From Xiphydria camelus (taxonomy: Eukaryota > Arthropoda > Insecta > Hymenoptera > Xiphydriidae): a stretch of DNA of 64,000 nt. Under the pieces are notes generated by a model that did not search any database, had not been told where the DNA came from, and saw only the letters and a program-made list of their open reading frames with translations. A program made the position numbers and the translations under genes. Positions 1 through 45,977 of this stretch are shown here, piece after piece. How positions within the stretch are numbered: the first letter of the stretch is position 1; every line of letters starts with the position of its first letter. The DNA lies in the NCBI GenBank assembly GCA_963678675.1, contig OY783197.1:14900460-14964459 (forward strand). The letters are read 5' to 3'.

Positions 1-193
1 TTTTGGGCGTGGGAGTGCAGTGGGTGGTGTGCCTTGTCCTGGTTGCTGGCCTCCTCTCGCGGTTCTTTCGGTGCTCGGTTAATTCCATCTTTTCGGTTCG
101 TGTGACGGTTTTCTTCGGCTTGTTGTTTGCCGGCATCGCCCTTGGCTCTGCTTACGCTCGGGCCGGCCTCTGTTGTGTTGTGTACGCCTGGCC

Positions 194-1540
194 ATGACGC
201 GCAAGTGTGGCTATTGTAGTAAATTTCTCGCGGATAAGAACGAGCTGCATTGTCAGGGCTCTTGCGGCAGTTATTTTCACACTGAATGTGCCGAGACTAG
301 GGCAGGTCGGCCCGTCGACCGAGCGACCTTCAGGTGCAGCAGGTGCATGATCGTGCGCACGCAAACCTCCGCTATGCCAGCTGCTGATAATCCGGCGCGT
401 AATGCCAGTGATTCTACTGCGCCCGCTGTTGATAATTCGATCAGTGTGGCGGCGACCTTGCCACCAGCGTCGCCTGCTCCTTTAGACTTTCCTGCGCTCT
501 CCTCGCCTGCTGCTCCGCCGTCGCCCCTTGCAGCCACGCTTGCCTCCCTCTGCGCTAAAATTGATGGGATTGAAGTGTTCATGGCCGAAATTAAGACCCT
601 TAGGGACTTGATGGTCGCCCTTCGGGAGCAGGTCTGCGCCATTAGAGAAGAACTGCGTGGTGTTATTGGCAGGGTATCTAGCCTAGAGTCTTCAATGGAG
701 GATCTCCGTGGGCGGAGTGCGGGGTTTGACGCACGTATTGCTGCCCCTGAGTCTGGGCCTGTCATCGCCGCCCCTTCTGGCCCTCCGGATGCTGACATTC
801 TTAGGCGGAGGATCGACACTCTGGAGCGTGATCGCTGCTCCCGTGAGATTTTTGTCTCAGGTTTATGCGAGCCTGATAACGTCGATGCGCGGGAGGCCCT
901 GAGCACGCTGGGGAGCGCCATTGGCGCTGCTGTTCCATTTGAAGGCGTCGTTGACGTCTTTCGAATCCCTGGAAGGCCTGGGGCTCCTCGTCCTCTCATC
1001 GTTAAGTTCTCCTCGAAGCATCTCCGGGATAGTTGGATTGTGCTCAAACGAGCGAAGAGGCGCCTTACTGGACGTGATCTCGGTCCAGCTTATGGCGACG
1101 GATCCATCTATGTCAACGAGCGCTTGCCTCCTGCAGCTCGGAGGATATTCTGGTAGGCGCCGAGGCTTGTGGCTGCGCGCCGGTTAAGGGATGCTTGGAC
1201 TGCGGGCGGAGCCGTTTATGTCAAGGCGAGTGCGTCTTCCTCGCCCAGGAGGATTTCTGCCTGCTCCGATCTTGTGGCGGTCTGTGGTGGGGATGGCTTG
1301 CCCCCTGCCTCTACTGCTACTACTGCTGCCACGCAAGTTGATGCCGGGTCCGCCATCGTCGCTGCCGTTGCTGCTGCGCCGTCCTCGACACCCACGACAA
1401 CCGCTGCACCTCCCCCTGGAGCAGCCGGTGGTGTTCCTGCCTGGGGACAGTTGCCTTCGACTTCATCGTCTTCCTCTGCTGTAGCCGGCCCTCTCTCTAG
1501 GGCCTCGTTATCTTCTTCAGCGGTGCCGTCTCGCTCCTGA
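194..1540 (+). pseudogene. LINE ORF1 protein with PHD-like zinc finger, one nonsense codon
   Basis: The product would be the nucleic-acid-binding protein of the LINE. From the ATG at 194 (an upstream in-frame ATG lies at 173) the protein opens with a Cys/His pattern, C-x2-C ... C-x3-C ... H-x2-C ... C-x2-C, over the first 50 residues; this resembles a PHD finger. A Pro/Ala-rich linker follows, then a predicted coiled-coil stretch near residues 115-180 and a C-terminal block (FRIPGR, YVNERLPP) typical of LINE ORF1 nucleic-acid-binding domains. A TAG at 1154-1156 interrupts the frame, but the same frame continues (AARRLRDAW) to the stop at 1540, so I read one nonsense mutation rather than two genes. 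Confidence 0.8.
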
Positions 1541-1594
1541 AGCTTATCGTCTCGGGCGAATTCAACCTGTCCTCCTACTAGCTCTCCTCCTAAC

Positions 1595-4313
1595 TTGCGC
1601 ATCTGTCATGTTAACGCACAATCCCTCCTTCCCCATATCGACGCCTTCCGGGATTATTTTTCTCTAAATTTCTTTCATGTCATCGCCATATCTGAAACCT
1701 GGCTTAAGCCTCACGTTGCGGACTTTACCGTAGCGCTTAATGGGTTTCATCTTCTTCGCCGTGATCGTATCGGAAGGGGGGGAGGTGGCGTGGGGCTTTA
1801 CGTGCATGGATCGTTGTCTTGTAGGTTCCTGGCCTCCTCTGATCCGCTTATTCCTGGGCGCTCTGAGATTCTCTTTTCTGAGATTACCTTCAGGGGTCAA
1901 CCAAGCTTGCTTTTGTGTGTCGTTTATAGGCCGCCAAAGATTGGCCACTACTCTGATTTCGAGAACGCGCTATCGGCGCTGCTAGCTAATTATACCAAAG
2001 TAGTCATTCTCTCGGGGATTTCAACGCCGACATTAATGGGAGTTCTTTCGACGCGGCTTACCTTAAAAACCTTATTTACGTCCATCATCTTACACTTGTT
2101 CCTTACCTACCCACGCACCACATCGCCTCCTCACATACTTGGTTGGACTTGTGCATTGTTGACCAGCACTCTGACATTGTTTCTTCTGGGCAGCGTCCCG
2201 TCAATTTTTTATCTATGCACGACCTCATATACGTGGTGCTCCCTATCAGATCTCCTGCCATCCCTCCCCGGACTCGCATTATCCGCGATTACAGTGCTTT
2301 CAACAAGGAAAGCTTCTCCGCTGACTTGGGTTCATGGGATTGGGAAGCATTTTCGGTCTCGCCTTGTATTGACGCTAAGGTCTGCTGCCTACTTGATGCT
2401 ATTACGGAGACCATCGGTAAGCATGCCCCGTATAAGGTTGTTACGTTCAAGCGTAAGCCTGCTCCTTGGATTTCGGCTGAGCTTCGTGCGCGGATGCGTG
2501 AGCGTAACAGGTTTCGGCGTGCCTTTGTGAGGGCCCGGCTGCCCCATCTTTATGTACAGTTTAGAGCTCTGCGAAATAGCATTCGCTCAGCGGTACGTGC
2601 GGCGAAGGTTAACTACTTCGATGTCATGCTTCGGGGTCGTCAGCAGCTGCGCGACATCTGGGGTGAGTTCAGGCGTCTCGGAGTGGCCAGTGAGAAAAGG
2701 GCCTCGTCTTCTCTTGTCGTGTCAGTTGATGTGAGCTAAATGACAATTTTCTCTCCTACTTTTCCCCCTCTGTCCCGCTTCCTACTTTCGATCTCGCCTC
2801 AGTACCCTTTGACCCTTCTCGTTTCTACCTTCTGCATATTACCCCTCGGGACCTTTCTTGTGGCCTTAAACGGTCAAAATCTAAAGCTGTTGGTGTAGAT
2901 GGGCTAGGCCTTACGTTGTTGGATTTGTCCTTGGATGTCTTATTTCCCCTCATTTTCAATCTCTTCAACTATTCCTTAGCTAATTCTGTCTTTCCTTCCT
3001 TGTGGAAGCAAGCGCTTATCAGGCCTATCCCGAAAGTTAAAACTCCCGTTTCTGCGGCTGACTATCGGCCCATTTCTATTTTGCCAACTCTTTCCAAGGT
3101 TCTTGAAAGAATTGTTCACGATCAGTTAGTCAATTTCATGACAGAAAATAGCCTCTTTGACCCTTGTCAGTCTGGGTTCCGTAAAAATTACAGTACCCAG
3201 ACTGCCCTGGTCAAGGTGGCTGATGATATTCGTTTCGGTATGGATCGGAGAATGTTAACTATCCTTGTCATGTTTGACTTCTCCAAGGCTTTCGACACCA
3301 TTTCTCACTGCAAGCTCCTGGCTGCTCTTGAGGGGCTGGGCTGCTCACTCTCGGTGCTCTCTTGGTTTCAGTCCTATCTTACCAATCGTTTCCAGGTAGT
3401 AGTTGATCCTCCCGGCTCGGCCTCTAACCTACCGCCGGTTCTCCAGTACTGTAAACACATGCTATATGCGGACAACCTGCAGATGTACTATCATTGCTCT
3501 CTGGCGGGGCTTAACGAGGCCATTAGGCTGGTAAATTTGGATGTCTCCTCGGTGGTGTCGTGGGTCGCTGATAACTCTTTAAAATTGAACGCATCCAAGA
3601 CTAAGTCCATTATTTTTGGAACCAGCAGGTTCATCAACTCGCTTAATTTTGACATTATTCCTAACATTGAGGCTGGCGATGTGTTAGTCCCTTATTCGCA
3701 AGTGGTGAGGAACCTTGGTGTATTGTTCTCCAGGACCTTGTCCTGGAACGACCACTTCTCCGAGGTTGTCAGGCGTATTCACGCTACGCTCTTTCAGCTT
3801 AAGAGAAATCTTGATTTCCTTCCTATCCATCTGCGGAAGAGGCTAGTTACTGCACTCATATTTCCACACTTTGACTATTGTGGGGCGTTGTTCGGGGACA
3901 TATCCGAGGAGCAGTGCGTCAGAGTACAGAGGGCCGTGAATATGTGTATCCGTTTCATCTTTGGTGTTCGGCGTGTCGAGCACATTACGCCTTATCGGCG
4001 TAATCTACATTGGCTTGATTATCGGAAGCGGTGCACATACCTCATTGGCTCCCTATTCTTCTCTGTCCGATCTACAGGTGAGCCGGCTTACCTTGCGGGC
4101 GTGTTTCGTGCCAAGGCTTCTTCTCTGGCGCACTGTACTCGGGAGCCTGTCTCCAACTTGCATGTCCCGGTGTGTCGGACTACCGTGTGCCAGAAATCTT
4201 TTGCTGTCGCCGCCTCCTCCCTGTGGAATTCGCTACCTCTTGTCATCAGGGAGTCAACCTCTGTCCCTATTTTTAAGAAGAGGCTTCGCTCTTGGCTGTT
4301 GTCCGATGACTAG
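1595..4313 (+). pseudogene. LINE ORF2: AP endonuclease and reverse transcriptase, broken
   Basis: This polyprotein nicks the target and reverse-transcribes the LINE RNA. Endonuclease motifs are visible in order: HVNAQSLLPH, ISETWLKP, GGGGVGLYV, VVYRPP and GDFNADING. The last is only readable after a frameshift near 2010, and the frame then runs to about 2735, where a second frameshift occurs. The RT begins with SKAVGVDG, then IRPIPK, YRPIS, QSGFR and motif A FDFSKAFDTI. Motif B (the usual PQGS block) is missing, so LPPV joins directly to LYADN. That is an internal deletion plus a change in the catalytic YADD box. The C-terminus (FKKRLRSWLL) is complete at 4313. It cannot be active. Confidence 0.9.
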
Positions 4314-41151: not shown

Positions 41152-43065
41152 TAAAACTACATGAAAATATGGAAACTGACAGTGAAGCCAATATTTCAGT
41201 GAGAGAAGCCAACGATGGTAGTAGGAAAAGGCAAAAAAATGAAACAAAACGACAAAAACAAACACTGCAAAGGTAAAAATAATATTACTTTGTATCGCGC
41301 AATGGTTCAATGAAATATGGGCTAGTCCTCGTGTTGGCAAATATTTGAGAGGGAGTTGACTGATATATATGAAAATTCATTACTTTTGAAGCACTAAAAA
41401 GTATAAAATAAAGCGGGATGCTTGACAAGCCTAGCTAGTTCGCCGTCTATATCTTTTCAGATATCTCGATGATAACCCAAGACAAAAGAATTTGAGAAGC
41501 CCTTGTTTGCATAAAAACGGCCCAACCTTCTTTTGCAATAAAATTGCTACCCATGACATTAAACATATTCGGCAAAAGTTTTATAACAATAACAACAAAA
41601 TTGAGCAGGATGTTAAACTGTGCAACTTTATGTCTGTTATTCCTATAGCCCGAAAACGATCTGAAAAAGAGAATTCCAAGAAACGCAGCTTTTCTGTTAA
41701 TTATTTCCTTCCTACAAGAGTTCGAAAGACTAAACTTCAAGTTTGCCAACAGTTTTTTTTAAAAGCGTTAAATATTAAAAAAGATAGAGCGAATTCTGTG
41801 GCAAGATTTATTTTCGCTAGAGACGCTCCCAAAGAACGGCGTGGTGGTGATCACGTTTCTAAAAAGACTGCAAACAAAAAAGATAAAGTGAGAGAGTTTC
41901 TCAATAGTTTAGAAGGAAAGGAGAGCCACTACAGCCGGGAAAAGTCGAAAAGAATTTATTTAAGGGGGTCGTCCACCTTCGAGTCGAAAATGAAAGCCTA
42001 TTTTCAGGAATTAATTGAAAAGGAACTACTGAAGATAATTGAGTAAATTTTTTTTTCTCTTATTGATAGATACTTCGCCTTTTAAAATGTAGGGGAAGGT
42101 GGGGCACAATGGAACATGGGGTACAGTGAAACATTCATACTAGCGAGCGGACGGAAGATCCTAATTCAACGGGATTCCGACAGAAAGCGCGGCGAGCGAT
42201 CCCCAACAACTCCAGCTGATCCCTCATTTCCACTTAGTTGAGCAACTAGATGTGCGTAGTGTAGTGCTTTTTTTCGTCGTGAAACTAAAAAATTTACTCC
42301 TACGGATTTTCGTCTCCAGGTAAGAGTGATTTTTGTATTCAGTTGGTTCTTATGGCAATTCAACCTATATGTATCGCTAAACATTTTGCTCTACTTTCAT
42401 CTTTCTACTTCGTCGCGTTCGTGGTAGGAAATGTGGGGAACCAAAATATCTGGATCGGGGTTCCTTGAAACACAGGCCGTGGGGGCACATTGAAACGTTT
42501 CATGGAGCCCCGACGGTATAAATATAGAAACCCAAGCGTTTTTCTTCAACCGTATTGATATGTTATGCTGGCAATCATTCATTCCTAGAAAAATAATACT
42601 TGTAGGTCCGCTGACCAGGTGTCTCACGTTAAATTCGTTTGTGTGACCAACTTTTATTCAAGTAAAATTCTTCCTGGGGAAAAAAATAATCTAAATAAAT
42701 GAAATAAAGGAACATTTAAAAAAAGGCAAATACCTAACGATTCGCTAAGGTAGCAGATACCTTATTTTTCTTTTTCCTTTTTGTTTGAGAAATGGTGCGG
42801 AATCGAAAGCGCAAAAGTGGCAAGGGGCTGTTCTTCGAAGAAGACATGAAGGCGGCAGTGGAAATGGTCATGAATGGTCGAAGTGTAAGAAGTGCTGCTG
42901 AATTAAAAAACGTGAGCCATGTTACTTTATCAAGATATGTTAACCCTTCACTGCATGATTTTTTATTTTTTTGTAAAAAAAAATATAAAGCTTAATAAAG
43001 CCTACAATAGCCAGGAAAAATATTTAAAAAAAATCTATATTTATTTTTTTACATTTATTTGACAT

Positions 43066-43906
43066 TGTAACGCGTGGATCGCAGCCGAGTCGGCATGCGT
43101 TAGCCTGCCGACGATTCAAGGGTTGGAGACAGCCCCGAGCGCGTCATAAGGGACGCGCAGGTAGTTAGGACGCGTCATCCGAGGACCTAACGGTCATCGG
43201 TCATCAGCGGGCTTTCGGCAAGGTCCGCAAACGGGGTATATTAGACGGCCGGCGAGCCATCGCCGCCAGACCATCTCGAGTCACGGTAGTGGAAGTTTTC
43301 GCTCAGCGAACACCACTATCCCTCGGAAGTCTCAGTCGAACGCCCTAGGGAAGTTTTCGCTCAGCGAACACCCTAGTAGTCGAACGGCCTCCACACGAGC
43401 GGCGACAGTTTTCGCTCAGCGAACATCGCAGCTCTCGTGGTTCACCGATCGACTCTCGAGCAACCGAGAGGGAAGTCTTCGCTCAGCGAACACCCTCTCG
43501 CGCGCAGATCTCTGACGGCCCTACGCCGTCCCGGCTTGAGGTTCGCTAGCGGCAGTTTTCGCTCCACGAACACCCTAGCGTCCTCGCCGCTCCAGCCGAC
43601 GTTCTCACGTCGCCTCGCCTACCCGGCGACCCTCTACGCGGACGAGTTACCTTCGCCTCCGGCCTGACGACGATTCCCGGGACGCGAGCAGCCCCCGGCA
43701 CGCCAGGACCGACGCAGCCGTTCCTGAGGACGACCCGCACCGCCTACGAGCTGCCCGACCGGCAGCCCCCTCCGACGCTTCTCCGAGCTCGATCCCTCCT
43801 GGGATCTTCTCTTTCCACACGCTTACGCTACCATTTTGTATTCCAGATCACGAATAAACCTTAGTTCCTAGTTTATTCGCGCTCTGTACATATTACCCCT
43901 CCTACA
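43066..43906. mobile_element. 841-bp GC-rich solo LTR (Gypsy-type)
   Basis: Begins TGTAACGCGTGG, ends CTCCTACA, flanked by ACAT on both sides (43062-43065 and 43907-43910). A TATA-like GGTATATTAG lies near 43236 and AATAAACC near 43853, so transcription would run on the plus strand. It contains an array of five hairpins between the two. No internal region remains. Confidence 0.82.
43286..43580 (+). other. Array of five hairpins with one loop and covarying stems
   Basis: The core AGTTTTCGCTCAGCGAACA occurs five times (the fourth reads AGTCTTCGC and the fifth TTCGCTCCACGAAC). Each core contains a small TTCGC/GCGAA hairpin. Each is enclosed by a different complementary stem: GTAGTGG/CCACTAT (43286/43313), CTAGGG/CCCTAG (43345/43371), CCACACGAGCGGCGA/TCGCAGCTCTCGTGG (43391/43426), CGAGAGGG/CCCTCTCG (43465/43493) and CGCTAGCGG/CCCTAGCG (43544/43573). 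Stems differ in sequence but keep pairing, so the RNA or DNA fold appears to matter. Confidence 0.85.
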
Positions 43907-44022
43907 ACATAAAAAAATACTGTTGTAAATTTACAACACTGTGCAAAAACTAAAACTTTTTGTTGTAAAGCTACAACATTATACACTTATGTAAGAATAA
44001 CTTCATAAGAAACGTGTAAAAT

Positions 44023-45977
44023 CTAATTGTGAAAATCTTTGAAGCAATTTTTTTTCTTGGTAAAGCAAAGTGACGCTCCACATTTTTCACACATTATTTG
44101 GGAATAACCCTTACAGTCTGGAAATTTACATCTCATTTGTTTTTCTAACCAGATCGGCCAATGATTAGTACCATCAGTGCGAACTTCTTTTACTGGCATA
44201 ACAACCGCTGGTCCTCGTTTCTTTTTTAATTGAAGCCTTTGTTCTATATTTTCCATTGACGGTCTTCCACGCTTCGCTGCAATGTTTGTTTGTCCCATTG
44301 AACATAAAGTGGCGGCTAAAATACTTTTAAATTTGGCCTGTGTTAAGCATTTGTTAGTATTGCCTTTTTGCTGCTGCACTCTTTTATATAAAATCCAGCT
44401 ATTTGCTACAGTTAGGTCCAAAAGATGATAGAATACTCTAAAGTACCATTTCTTACTTCGTCTTAGAATTTTTACTCTACCCAAATTACTATCGAGTAGA
44501 TCCACACCCCCCATATGGCGATTATATTCCCTAATTACAAAGGGGCAGTTTACATTAACTTTTTCTTTTTGTTTTCTGTCATATCGCTCCACAGTTTCAA
44601 TAGGATTTTCTCCTGCGAAAGTTGATAGAAGGGTTACAGTTTTATTGTCCTTCCACACGACTCCAGAAATATCTACTCCATCACAGGAGGCTACCATTTC
44701 AAAACTCTTACCGCGATCTTCATTTTTCATTGATTTTTCATCGGGAAATTTACAGTTTGGTACTCGGTTTCGGCGAACTGTACCTAAACTATGAATTCCT
44801 TGTTTAGCTAAGAATACTAGTAGTGGTACTGAAGTATAATAATTATCGAAATAAATTCTGTGGTTTACATTATTTGGAACTGCTCTTGTCAGCCTTACCA
44901 CTACGTTTGCTGAAGCACCAAGATCTATTTCATTTGTAAGTCTGTCTTTCTCAGCATTTTCCTGACCAGAATACATTTCGAACCTATAGGCATAGCCTGA
45001 AACCCCACAAAGAACAAAAAATTTGAAGCCCCATTTATGTGGCTTATTAGGTAAGTACTGTTTCAAATGATGACGTGCTTTGGTAGAACATATCTGTTCA
45101 TCTACTGACAAAAATTGTTCAATTGGTATATCCCTACAAAAATTTGTGTTCAAACAATCAATGAGGGGTCTTAGTTTATGTAGCCGATCATATTCAGGAT
45201 TTTCACGTGGCAAATGTTCTTCATTGTTATTGAAATGTAAGTAACGTCTGATTTTTTCATATCTATTCACGGGCATTGCCTCTTTTATTTTTTCAAATCC
45301 CAAGTCTTCAGACCAATAAGCACGGCAGTTTGGCAAATGGACAAGAGACATATACAAAGTTACTCCAAGAAAACGTTTGATTTCGTTTTTAGTTATATTT
45401 AGTGGTTTACTAGGGTCCTTTTGGATAGCATAAAGATTTGATTGCTCTACGATTTTTTCAAAAATATCATCAGTAAACAAATAACTAAAAAATTCATAGG
45501 GACTTTCAAGATCCAAGACATTTTGACTAAATGATGAGTTGCCTTGAAACGCCAGTTGTTCATCGTTGAGAACCAAGTGTTTCTTCTTCCAAATAATATC
45601 TAAAAAAATGCATACAATAGATTTCATAAACAAATAGGTACTGAGTACTTTTTGAATATACCTTTATAGTTATTTTTTGTAATTTTACTGGAGGTTGTCG
45701 GAGCGGCTTCATCAGTAGTGGCACTAGACATTGGCGTCACCATATCCGGAAAAATTTCCTGATTTTCTCGATCTTCCTCAATATCATCCATCGTGGAAGA
45801 TATATTATTTGGCTCTAATTCGTCTGGAGAAAAGTCGGGGTCCGCAATACTGTCGTCGTCATCAAAATCATAATCATCCTCACTCTCTGACAAATTGTTA
45901 ACAATTTCCTCCAACTCCTTGTCGCTAAGAAAACGGTTGCCCCTATATCTCGTCTCCATCTGAAAATTATTTGACAT
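44023..45977 (-). CDS. piggyBac transposase (PGBD2/3-like), intact
   Basis: Two exons: 45977-45662 (MSNNFQMETRYRGNRFL, then a Ser/Glu/Asp-rich N-terminus) and 45599-44023. The intron 45661-45600 has GTATAT and TTTTTTTAG borders and joins in phase as GAT (Asp) before IIWKKKHL. Total about 630 residues, normal for the family. Catalytic Asp residues sit in FLSVDEQICSTKAR, IYFDNYYTSVPL and MGGVDLLDSNLG. The C-terminal Cys-rich domain is CKFPDCKGYSQIMCEKCG, C and CFKDFH. Paired ends are present, no stop or frameshift. It lies antisense to the pogo gene it interrupts. Whether it is expressed is unknown. Confidence 0.93.

What the first reader, a model, noticed from the sequence alone, without database searches (positions are those of the whole stretch)
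43286..43580. Five tandem LTR hairpins with a constant loop and compensating stems
Within one solo LTR the same roughly 20-nt core (with its own TTCGC/GCGAA mini-stem) occurs five times, each time enclosed by a different basal stem of 6 to 15 bp whose two sides complement each other (for example GTAGTGG/CCACTAT, CTAGGG/CCCTAG, CGAGAGGG/CCCTCTCG). Tandem duplication alone would copy the stems too. Changed stems that still pair are the signature of selection on structure, or of repeated inverted capture. The array lies between a TATA-like site and a poly(A) signal, so it would be in the R/U5 part of the RNA. I know of no named LTR motif like it. A role in packaging, RT priming, translation or silencing escape is speculation.
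Basis: partly seen in the sequence, partly recalled or inferred. Interest (0 to 1): 0.88.

Follow-up and report, generated by a model that had tools for sequence, protein, structure and literature searches.

The report
Compensating RNA hairpin array in LTRs
A family of jumping genes in an insect-like genome carries, near the start of its RNA, a row of four to six small hairpins that share one core while their stems change in matched pairs, which points to a repeated docking site for a protein the element needs.

Summary
Window 43066-43906 is a solo LTR (841 bp, 4-bp target repeat ACAT) with five hairpins at 43285-43580. Each has its own basal stem, a nearly constant asymmetric internal loop (mostly AAGUU or CAGUU against CA) and a nearly constant inner stem (UUCGC/GCGAA). 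The LTR belongs to a young Ty3/Gypsy-type family: gag-protease-only copies, plus one copy with a 1471-aa gag-pol frame and a 98-99% identical LTR. Three other families in the same genome, with LTRs 71-85% alike, carry 4, 5-6 and 6 such hairpins. Over 31 chosen hairpins (29 distinct), 9 of 13 pairs show changes on both sides; double-change cells are 66 against 22.7 in shuffles, and 0 of 5000 flank permutations fold as well. Similar hairpins of different families differ by complete compensations, and inner-stem wobbles favour the transcribed strand. So this is a selected RNA structure. The 'constant loop' needs correcting: the apical triloop varies; the internal loop and inner stem are what is kept. 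Tandem duplication does occur (one LTR has a fresh sixth hairpin), followed by compensatory drift. Function is inferred only: a multivalent docking site, most likely for the element's own Gag (packaging/dimerisation); RNA export is the main rival. No Rfam match.

The parts
43062..43065 (.). target-site duplication ACAT, left copy
   Evidence: 20 of 21 insertions in L001-L022 show a perfect 4-bp repeat (L019 does not)
43066..43906 (+). solo LTR, TG...CA, 841 bp
   Evidence: a second length class of 901-902 bp carries a 61-bp tandem duplication
43237..43243 (+). TATA-like site (TATATTA)
   Evidence: sequence; GGGTATA found by script in L009; promoter use not tested
43285..43320 (+). hairpin H1
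43345..43376 (+). hairpin H2
43391..43440 (+). hairpin H3, longest basal stem (4+4+4 bp)
43465..43500 (+). hairpin H4
43544..43580 (+). hairpin H5, one bulged C in the 5' basal arm
43844..43886 (+). 16-nt inverted repeat enclosing the poly(A) signal AATAAA (43853-43858)
   Evidence: (I1)
43907..43910 (.). target-site duplication ACAT, right copy

Best explanation
The array is a cis-acting RNA element in the R region of a Ty3/Gypsy-type LTR retrotransposon clade, so it lies near both ends of the genomic RNA. Each hairpin presents the same small recognition module: the asymmetric internal loop (A/C)AGUU against CA plus the inner stem UUCGC/GCGAA. The basal stem only has to pair, so it drifts by compensation. 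Units multiply by tandem duplication and then diverge. Four to six units in a row make a multivalent docking site. The most likely reader is the element's own zinc-knuckle Gag, selecting and perhaps dimerising the RNA for packaging; this would also let gag-protease-only copies be carried by particles and enzymes of gag-pol copies with almost the same LTR. Shown: structure, compensation, spread over four families, partner elements.
For: Compensation among the five paralogous hairpins. Thirteen loci of diverged sublineages: 66 model hits (one on the opposite strand), 40 distinct rows, 8 of 13 pairs changed on both sides, 79 double-change cells against 25.0 in shuffles, 0 of 500. Four families, 31 chosen hairpins from 6 sources, 29 distinct: 9 of 13 pairs changed on both sides, 66 double-change cells against 22.7, 0 of 500; partners slid by 1-3 columns fall from 89.9% paired to 36-48%. 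Matched flanks fold at a mean of -14.16 (31) against -9.73 (900 swaps); 0 of 5000 permutations reach the true total. Compensations between similar hairpins: H4 A-U to U-A in L034, H3 C-G to U-A between the window and 13 of 13 other loci, and, assigning family B hairpins to H1, H4 and H5 by likeness, G-C to A-U, G-C to A-U, A-U to G-C; inner stem G-C to A-U in D_1. The asymmetric internal loop is never converted to a paired one, against mere quasi-palindrome repair. Inner-stem wobbles: 11 cells G-U on the + strand against 1 A-C cell that would be G-U on the other. Array positions vary less among young LTRs: 3 of 295 against 30 of 546 (p 0.0012); within the search query only, 3 of 295 against 9 of 206 (p 0.033). 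Gag with CCHC-like knuckle and protease in one frame, no RT in it; copy with RT, RNase H and integrase whose 5' LTR is 98-99% identical to the window's and has the five hairpins.
Against: Nothing here tests binding, packaging or transcription. In long context H1 and H2 are predicted to pair with each other. Energies are no lower than expected in family D on the + strand (z -1.09) and similar on both strands elsewhere. Outer-stem wobbles do not favour a strand: 4 G-U against 3 A-C (bulged class left out). The measure 'further pair types' does not exceed shuffles (182 of 500, 423 of 500). Hairpins within a locus and loci within a family are related, so cells are not independent events. Six of 13 diverged loci share a 1-nt deletion in the H4 core. 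Co-occurrence of array and Gag clade can be plain common descent.
Confidence: 0.45

Rival explanations
1. The array recruits a host export or stability factor (as a constitutive transport element recruits NXF1), so that unspliced RNA leaves the nucleus.
For: Conserved internal loops on freely varying stems is how CTE-type elements are recalled to work; passages of PMC7551171 describe the MPMV CTE as a long stem-loop with two internal loops that binds NXF1-NXT1. Several copies would raise avidity.
Against: No sign of a spliced RNA was looked for or seen; gag-protease and gag-pol lie in one open frame. No Rfam family matches. The array is an array of small hairpins, not one long stem.
Confidence: 0.25
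2. The array governs translation of the long leader: hairpins near the cap either slow scanning or serve as internal entry, setting the balance between translated and packaged RNA.
For: The gag ATG is the first ATG in the leader of the window's family (0 in 803 nt), of the gag-pol copy (0 in 796) and of family B (0 in 735 and 687).
Against: Families C and D have 1-3 upstream ATGs. A dinucleotide shuffle also gives few ATGs (mean 1.46, P 0.21). Neither mode needs five identical recognition cores.
Confidence: 0.12
3. Selection acts on DNA: the core is a palindromic protein site, for example an insulator or promoter element in the LTR.
For: The core is a quasi-palindrome, repeated, and close to the promoter; gypsy-type insulators are arrays of sites (recalled).
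Against: A DNA site gives no reason for different basal stems that pair within each unit, nor for wobble changes favouring one strand in the inner stem.
Confidence: 0.06
4. No function: template switching during reverse transcription repairs imperfect palindromes and so makes compensating changes by mutation alone.
For: Quasi-palindrome correction is a known mutational route (recalled), and these elements pass through reverse transcription. L026 shows that the region rearranges.
Against: The same process should also pair up the asymmetric internal loop and the bulges, yet these persist over four families. It does not explain the constant core or the low variation of the array.
Confidence: 0.1

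Closest known systems
Retroviral and Ty1/Ty3 packaging and dimerisation signals (psi; Ty1 TIPIRT)
   Same: structured hairpins near the 5' end of the genomic RNA, in elements whose Gag has RNA-binding knuckles (Ty1 work seen as listing and abstract start only, PMC5454406, PMC8396678)
   Different: here one module repeated 4-6 times with freely changing stems, inside R and so at both RNA ends; Gag binding untested
Constitutive transport elements (MPMV CTE, MLV gamma-CTE)
   Same: conserved internal loop on paired stems, in a retroelement RNA (passages of PMC7551171)
   Different: array of short hairpins; the AAGACA loop reported there for gamma-CTE is not the loop seen here; NXF1 binding untested
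HIV TAR and RRE
   Same: bulged hairpin in R (TAR, recalled); several protein molecules on one RNA (RRE)
   Different: no Tat or Rev-like gene seen in the 598-aa frame; units are near-copies in tandem
Dispersed hairpin packaging signals of small RNA viruses (STNV)
   Same: many hairpins sharing a small motif (abstract start of PMC6475782)
   Different: here tandem, with a strict core and conserved order over four families
gypsy insulator / Su(Hw) site array
   Same: repeated protein sites in an LTR-element leader (recalled)
   Different: DNA sites without pairing flanks

Membership tests
Ty3/Gypsy LTR retrotransposon | LTRs with TG...CA ends and a 4-bp target repeat | tested here: met
   20 of 21 insertions with a perfect 4-bp repeat
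Ty3/Gypsy LTR retrotransposon | primer binding site after the 5' LTR and polypurine tract before the 3' LTR | tested here: met
   TGGCGCC... 2 nt after the LTR; AGAGGGGGAGAT before the 3' LTR (the tRNA-Lys assignment is recalled)
Ty3/Gypsy LTR retrotransposon | gag, protease, RT, RNase H, integrase in that order | tested here: met
   met for the gag-pol copy (L057, L068); the short copies hold gag-protease only (gag hits below the curated cut-offs). No RT tree was built
TRIM (terminal-repeat retrotransposon in miniature) | very short element without coding sequence | tested here: not met
   LTRs 841-902 bp and a 598-aa open frame
Retroviral packaging signal (psi) | binds Gag and directs packaging | not testable with these tools
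   position in the leader fits; no assay
Constitutive transport element | binds NXF1 and exports unspliced RNA | not testable with these tools
   no assay; AAGACA loop absent from the shared core
Known RNA family (Rfam 15) | covariance-model match at the gathering score | tested here: not met
   0 matches for L009 540-1600; for window 42900-44000 four matches at E 0.36-2.9, all far below gathering scores and none in the array
Self-cleaving ribozyme / retrozyme | hammerhead or other ribozyme fold | tested here: not met
   no such Rfam match; unknown ribozymes are not excluded

The most novel reading that the evidence does not exclude
A new class of retroelement RNA signal: a self-multiplying array of identical protein-docking modules on freely drifting stems, shared by gag-pol elements and their gag-protease derivatives, where copy number of the module (4 to 6) is a trait under selection in competition for packaging, an RNA counterpart of a multivalent binding-site array.
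Probability: 0.3. Interest if true: 0.8.

Novelty: new variant of a known kind. Interest (0 to 1): 0.64.

Why it matters
How Ty3/Gypsy elements of animals choose their own RNA for packaging is poorly known as far as I recall. A 20-nt core, repeated and kept over four families while its stems vary, names the exact nucleotides to test against Gag or host factors, and gives natural series with 4, 5 and 6 units. It also offers a sequence tag to look for related elements, since LTRs usually diverge beyond recognition.

Tried and rejected
Rfam: no match. Viral and prokaryote collections: the exact 18-nt core occurs once in IMG/VR, L023, where the model matches the core only (positions 15-32) and no stem; a two-core pattern gave 0; the pattern in GTDB contigs gave 0; searches with the Gag protein or its alignment gave no confirmed relative. 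More distant Gypsy relatives in the genome: upstream stretches L070-L073 (gag 25-41% identical) gave no model hit at E up to 1, and L069 (50%) one weak hit, E 0.02, whose own fold is not the standard one; I did not check that these stretches contain LTRs, so this is weak evidence of absence. L060 (gag 88%) has no hairpins, but on reading the sequence its LTR pieces look interrupted right at the ends by unrelated DNA, recalled as mariner-like and copia-like coding, so it was set aside. Cell counts in the A3 and A5 alignments treat bulged (H5-type) hairpins in the unbulged register, which lowers the paired fraction.

Sampling limits: only 40 of 275 candidates were scored; only 100 of 783 places were listed, from C1, C6 and part of C10; only 73 of 254 candidates were scored. 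For A5 I chose 31 hairpins from the window, L034, L061, L063, L065 and L067; L057, L058, L059, L062, L064 and L066 were left out as near copies of families already included, and L067 contributes 5. Among the 30 LTR rows the L008 row is the same LTR as one of L011, so 29 are distinct. Copies were picked by likeness to a query that includes the array, hence the narrower test.

Papers: PMC7551171 seen as passages; all others as search listings with abstract starts (one search listed none). That no such LTR hairpin array is in print rests only on those searches of this library; with 'tandem hairpins' and like terms gave 3 papers, none on this.

Full report
What is there. The window lies in an unnamed 357-Mb genome of 38 contigs; its transposon-rich content and protein relatives point to an insect, but the species was not identified. 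Window 43066-43906 is a solo LTR, TG...CA, flanked by ACAT on both sides. The search for 43200-43700 had 275 candidates, of which 40 were scored and all 40 listed as 100% identical after rounding. In the 22 loci then examined (L001-L022) there are 21 separate insertions, 20 with a perfect 4-bp target repeat; LTRs come as 841 bp or 901-902 bp, the latter with a 61-bp tandem duplication. Eight copies have both LTRs, 2734-2796 bp apart; six pairs show no difference, one shows 1 and one 2, so insertions are recent. Between the LTRs lies one 598-aa open frame with weak Ty3-capsid and better aspartic-protease matches and no RT.

The five hairpins. All five cores fold alone into the same shape: basal stem, 5-nt against 2-nt internal loop, 5-bp inner stem (4 bp in H5), small apical loop. 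The basal stems differ, yet pair. Across the five, 6 of 8 basal pairs show changes on both sides and 0 of 5 inner pairs do; the covariation score is 0.454 against 0.183 in shuffles, 0 of 500. Swapping 3' flanks among the hairpins makes the fold worse in every other permutation (best of 120). Less clear: simple pair counts in ungapped arms (13 of 120 permutations as good), energies of single hairpins with shuffled flanks (z -0.84 to -2.11), and the long-range fold in which H1 and H2 pair with each other.

Beyond the window. The core with up to 2 mismatches occurs 783 times in the genome against 31 for the reversed control pattern. Thirteen loci with unusual spacing were fetched, 88-96% identical to the window LTR over most of the aligned length, with some pieces lower, down to 81%. 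The model finds 66 hits there, one on the opposite strand. Homologous positions show a full A-U to U-A swap in H4 of L034 and a C-G to U-A swap in H3 between the window and the 13 others; many single changes in these old solo LTRs break pairs, as expected for decay after insertion. L026 has a tandem second copy of H2. Six of 13 loci share a 1-nt deletion in the H4 core.

Partners and other families. The Gag protein search scored 73 of 254 candidates. It found 19 near-identical copies, two of them with one stop; a copy with a 1471-aa open frame (L057) whose pieces match RT and RNase H and integrase; and copies with 70-78% identical Gag. The 5' LTR of L057 is 97.7-98.8% identical to the window LTR in two pieces and has the five hairpins. 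L037, with a 698-aa frame, keeps remnants resembling the pol region (read by eye and by tblastn with P0003). Together with the C-terminal likeness to Spodoptera polyproteins, this suggests that the gag-protease copies arose by internal loss of RT, RNase H and integrase. Families B (L061, L062, L066), C (L059, L063, L067) and D (L065) have LTR pieces 71-85% identical to the window LTR, with 4, 5-6 and 6 hairpins. Their cores vary in the apical triloop, in one or two internal-loop bases and by wobble in the inner stem.

Test over families. With 31 chosen hairpins, 29 distinct, 89.9% of cells pair; 9 of 13 pairs show changes on both sides against 6.0 in shuffles; 66 cells against 22.7; covariation score 0.463 against 0.209; 0 of 500 in each. 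The number of further pair types does not stand out (182 of 500). Matched flanks fold at -14.16 on average against -9.73 for 900 swaps, and 0 of 5000 permutations reach the true total. These controls do not remove relatedness, so I rest the claim on the combination with the slid control (36-48% paired) and on complete swaps in similar hairpins of different families. Inner-stem wobbles are G-U on the + strand in 11 cells against 1 A-C; outer stems 4 against 3. Because related hairpins share changes, the 11 cells are perhaps four or five events.

Constraint. Among young LTRs the array has 3 variable sites in 295 against 30 in 546 elsewhere (p 0.0012), and 3 in 295 against 9 in 206 when only the part inside the search query is compared (p 0.033). 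CpG density is similar in the three parts. Of the two sites inside hairpins (43393, 43396), one changes A-U to G-U and the other lies in an unpaired internal loop (pairing read from the fold).

Interpretation. Shown: a conserved RNA structure with compensating stems in four LTR families, and an inherited core. Inferred: it is transcribed in R (TATA-like site at 43237, AATAAA at 43853, start site assumed near 43265), and it binds a protein. I favour Gag, because the array travels with this Gag clade, lies in the leader, and serves elements that must share particles with a gag-pol partner; but travel with the clade is also what descent alone gives. I put selected RNA structure on the transcribed strand at about 0.9, protein docking at about 0.75 and Gag packaging at about 0.45. 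Export, translation, DNA-level selection and mutational palindrome repair are treated as rivals.

Noticed in passing
window 43844-43886: The poly(A) signal sits in the loop side of a 16-nt inverted repeat (88% complementary), reminiscent of the poly(A) hairpin of lentiviruses (recalled).
   Followed up: no
LTR position 43694-43699 in other copies (L009 1182-1299): A 61-bp tandem duplication separates two LTR length classes; the window copy is the short one.
   Followed up: partly
L009 1556-3352: 598-aa gag-protease frame; nearest named relative is called Arc1 in the bee Anthophora (39% identity), itself 627 aa with no RT listed, so gag-protease-only relatives may exist elsewhere.
   Followed up: partly
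window 44023-45663 (- strand): Long open frame beside the LTR that looks like a piggyBac-type transposase (recalled, no search).
   Followed up: no
window 83-4313: Frames resembling a LINE with a PHD-like finger, endonuclease and RT (recalled, no search), in a stretch with 53% GC.
   Followed up: no
L060 1-952 and 2817-4314: A copy of this clade whose LTRs are interrupted at both ends by DNA that reads like mariner and copia coding.
   Followed up: partly
L069 279-321 (- strand): A weak single match to the hairpin model (E 0.02) upstream of a 50% identical Gag, possibly a decayed or recombined unit.
   Followed up: partly
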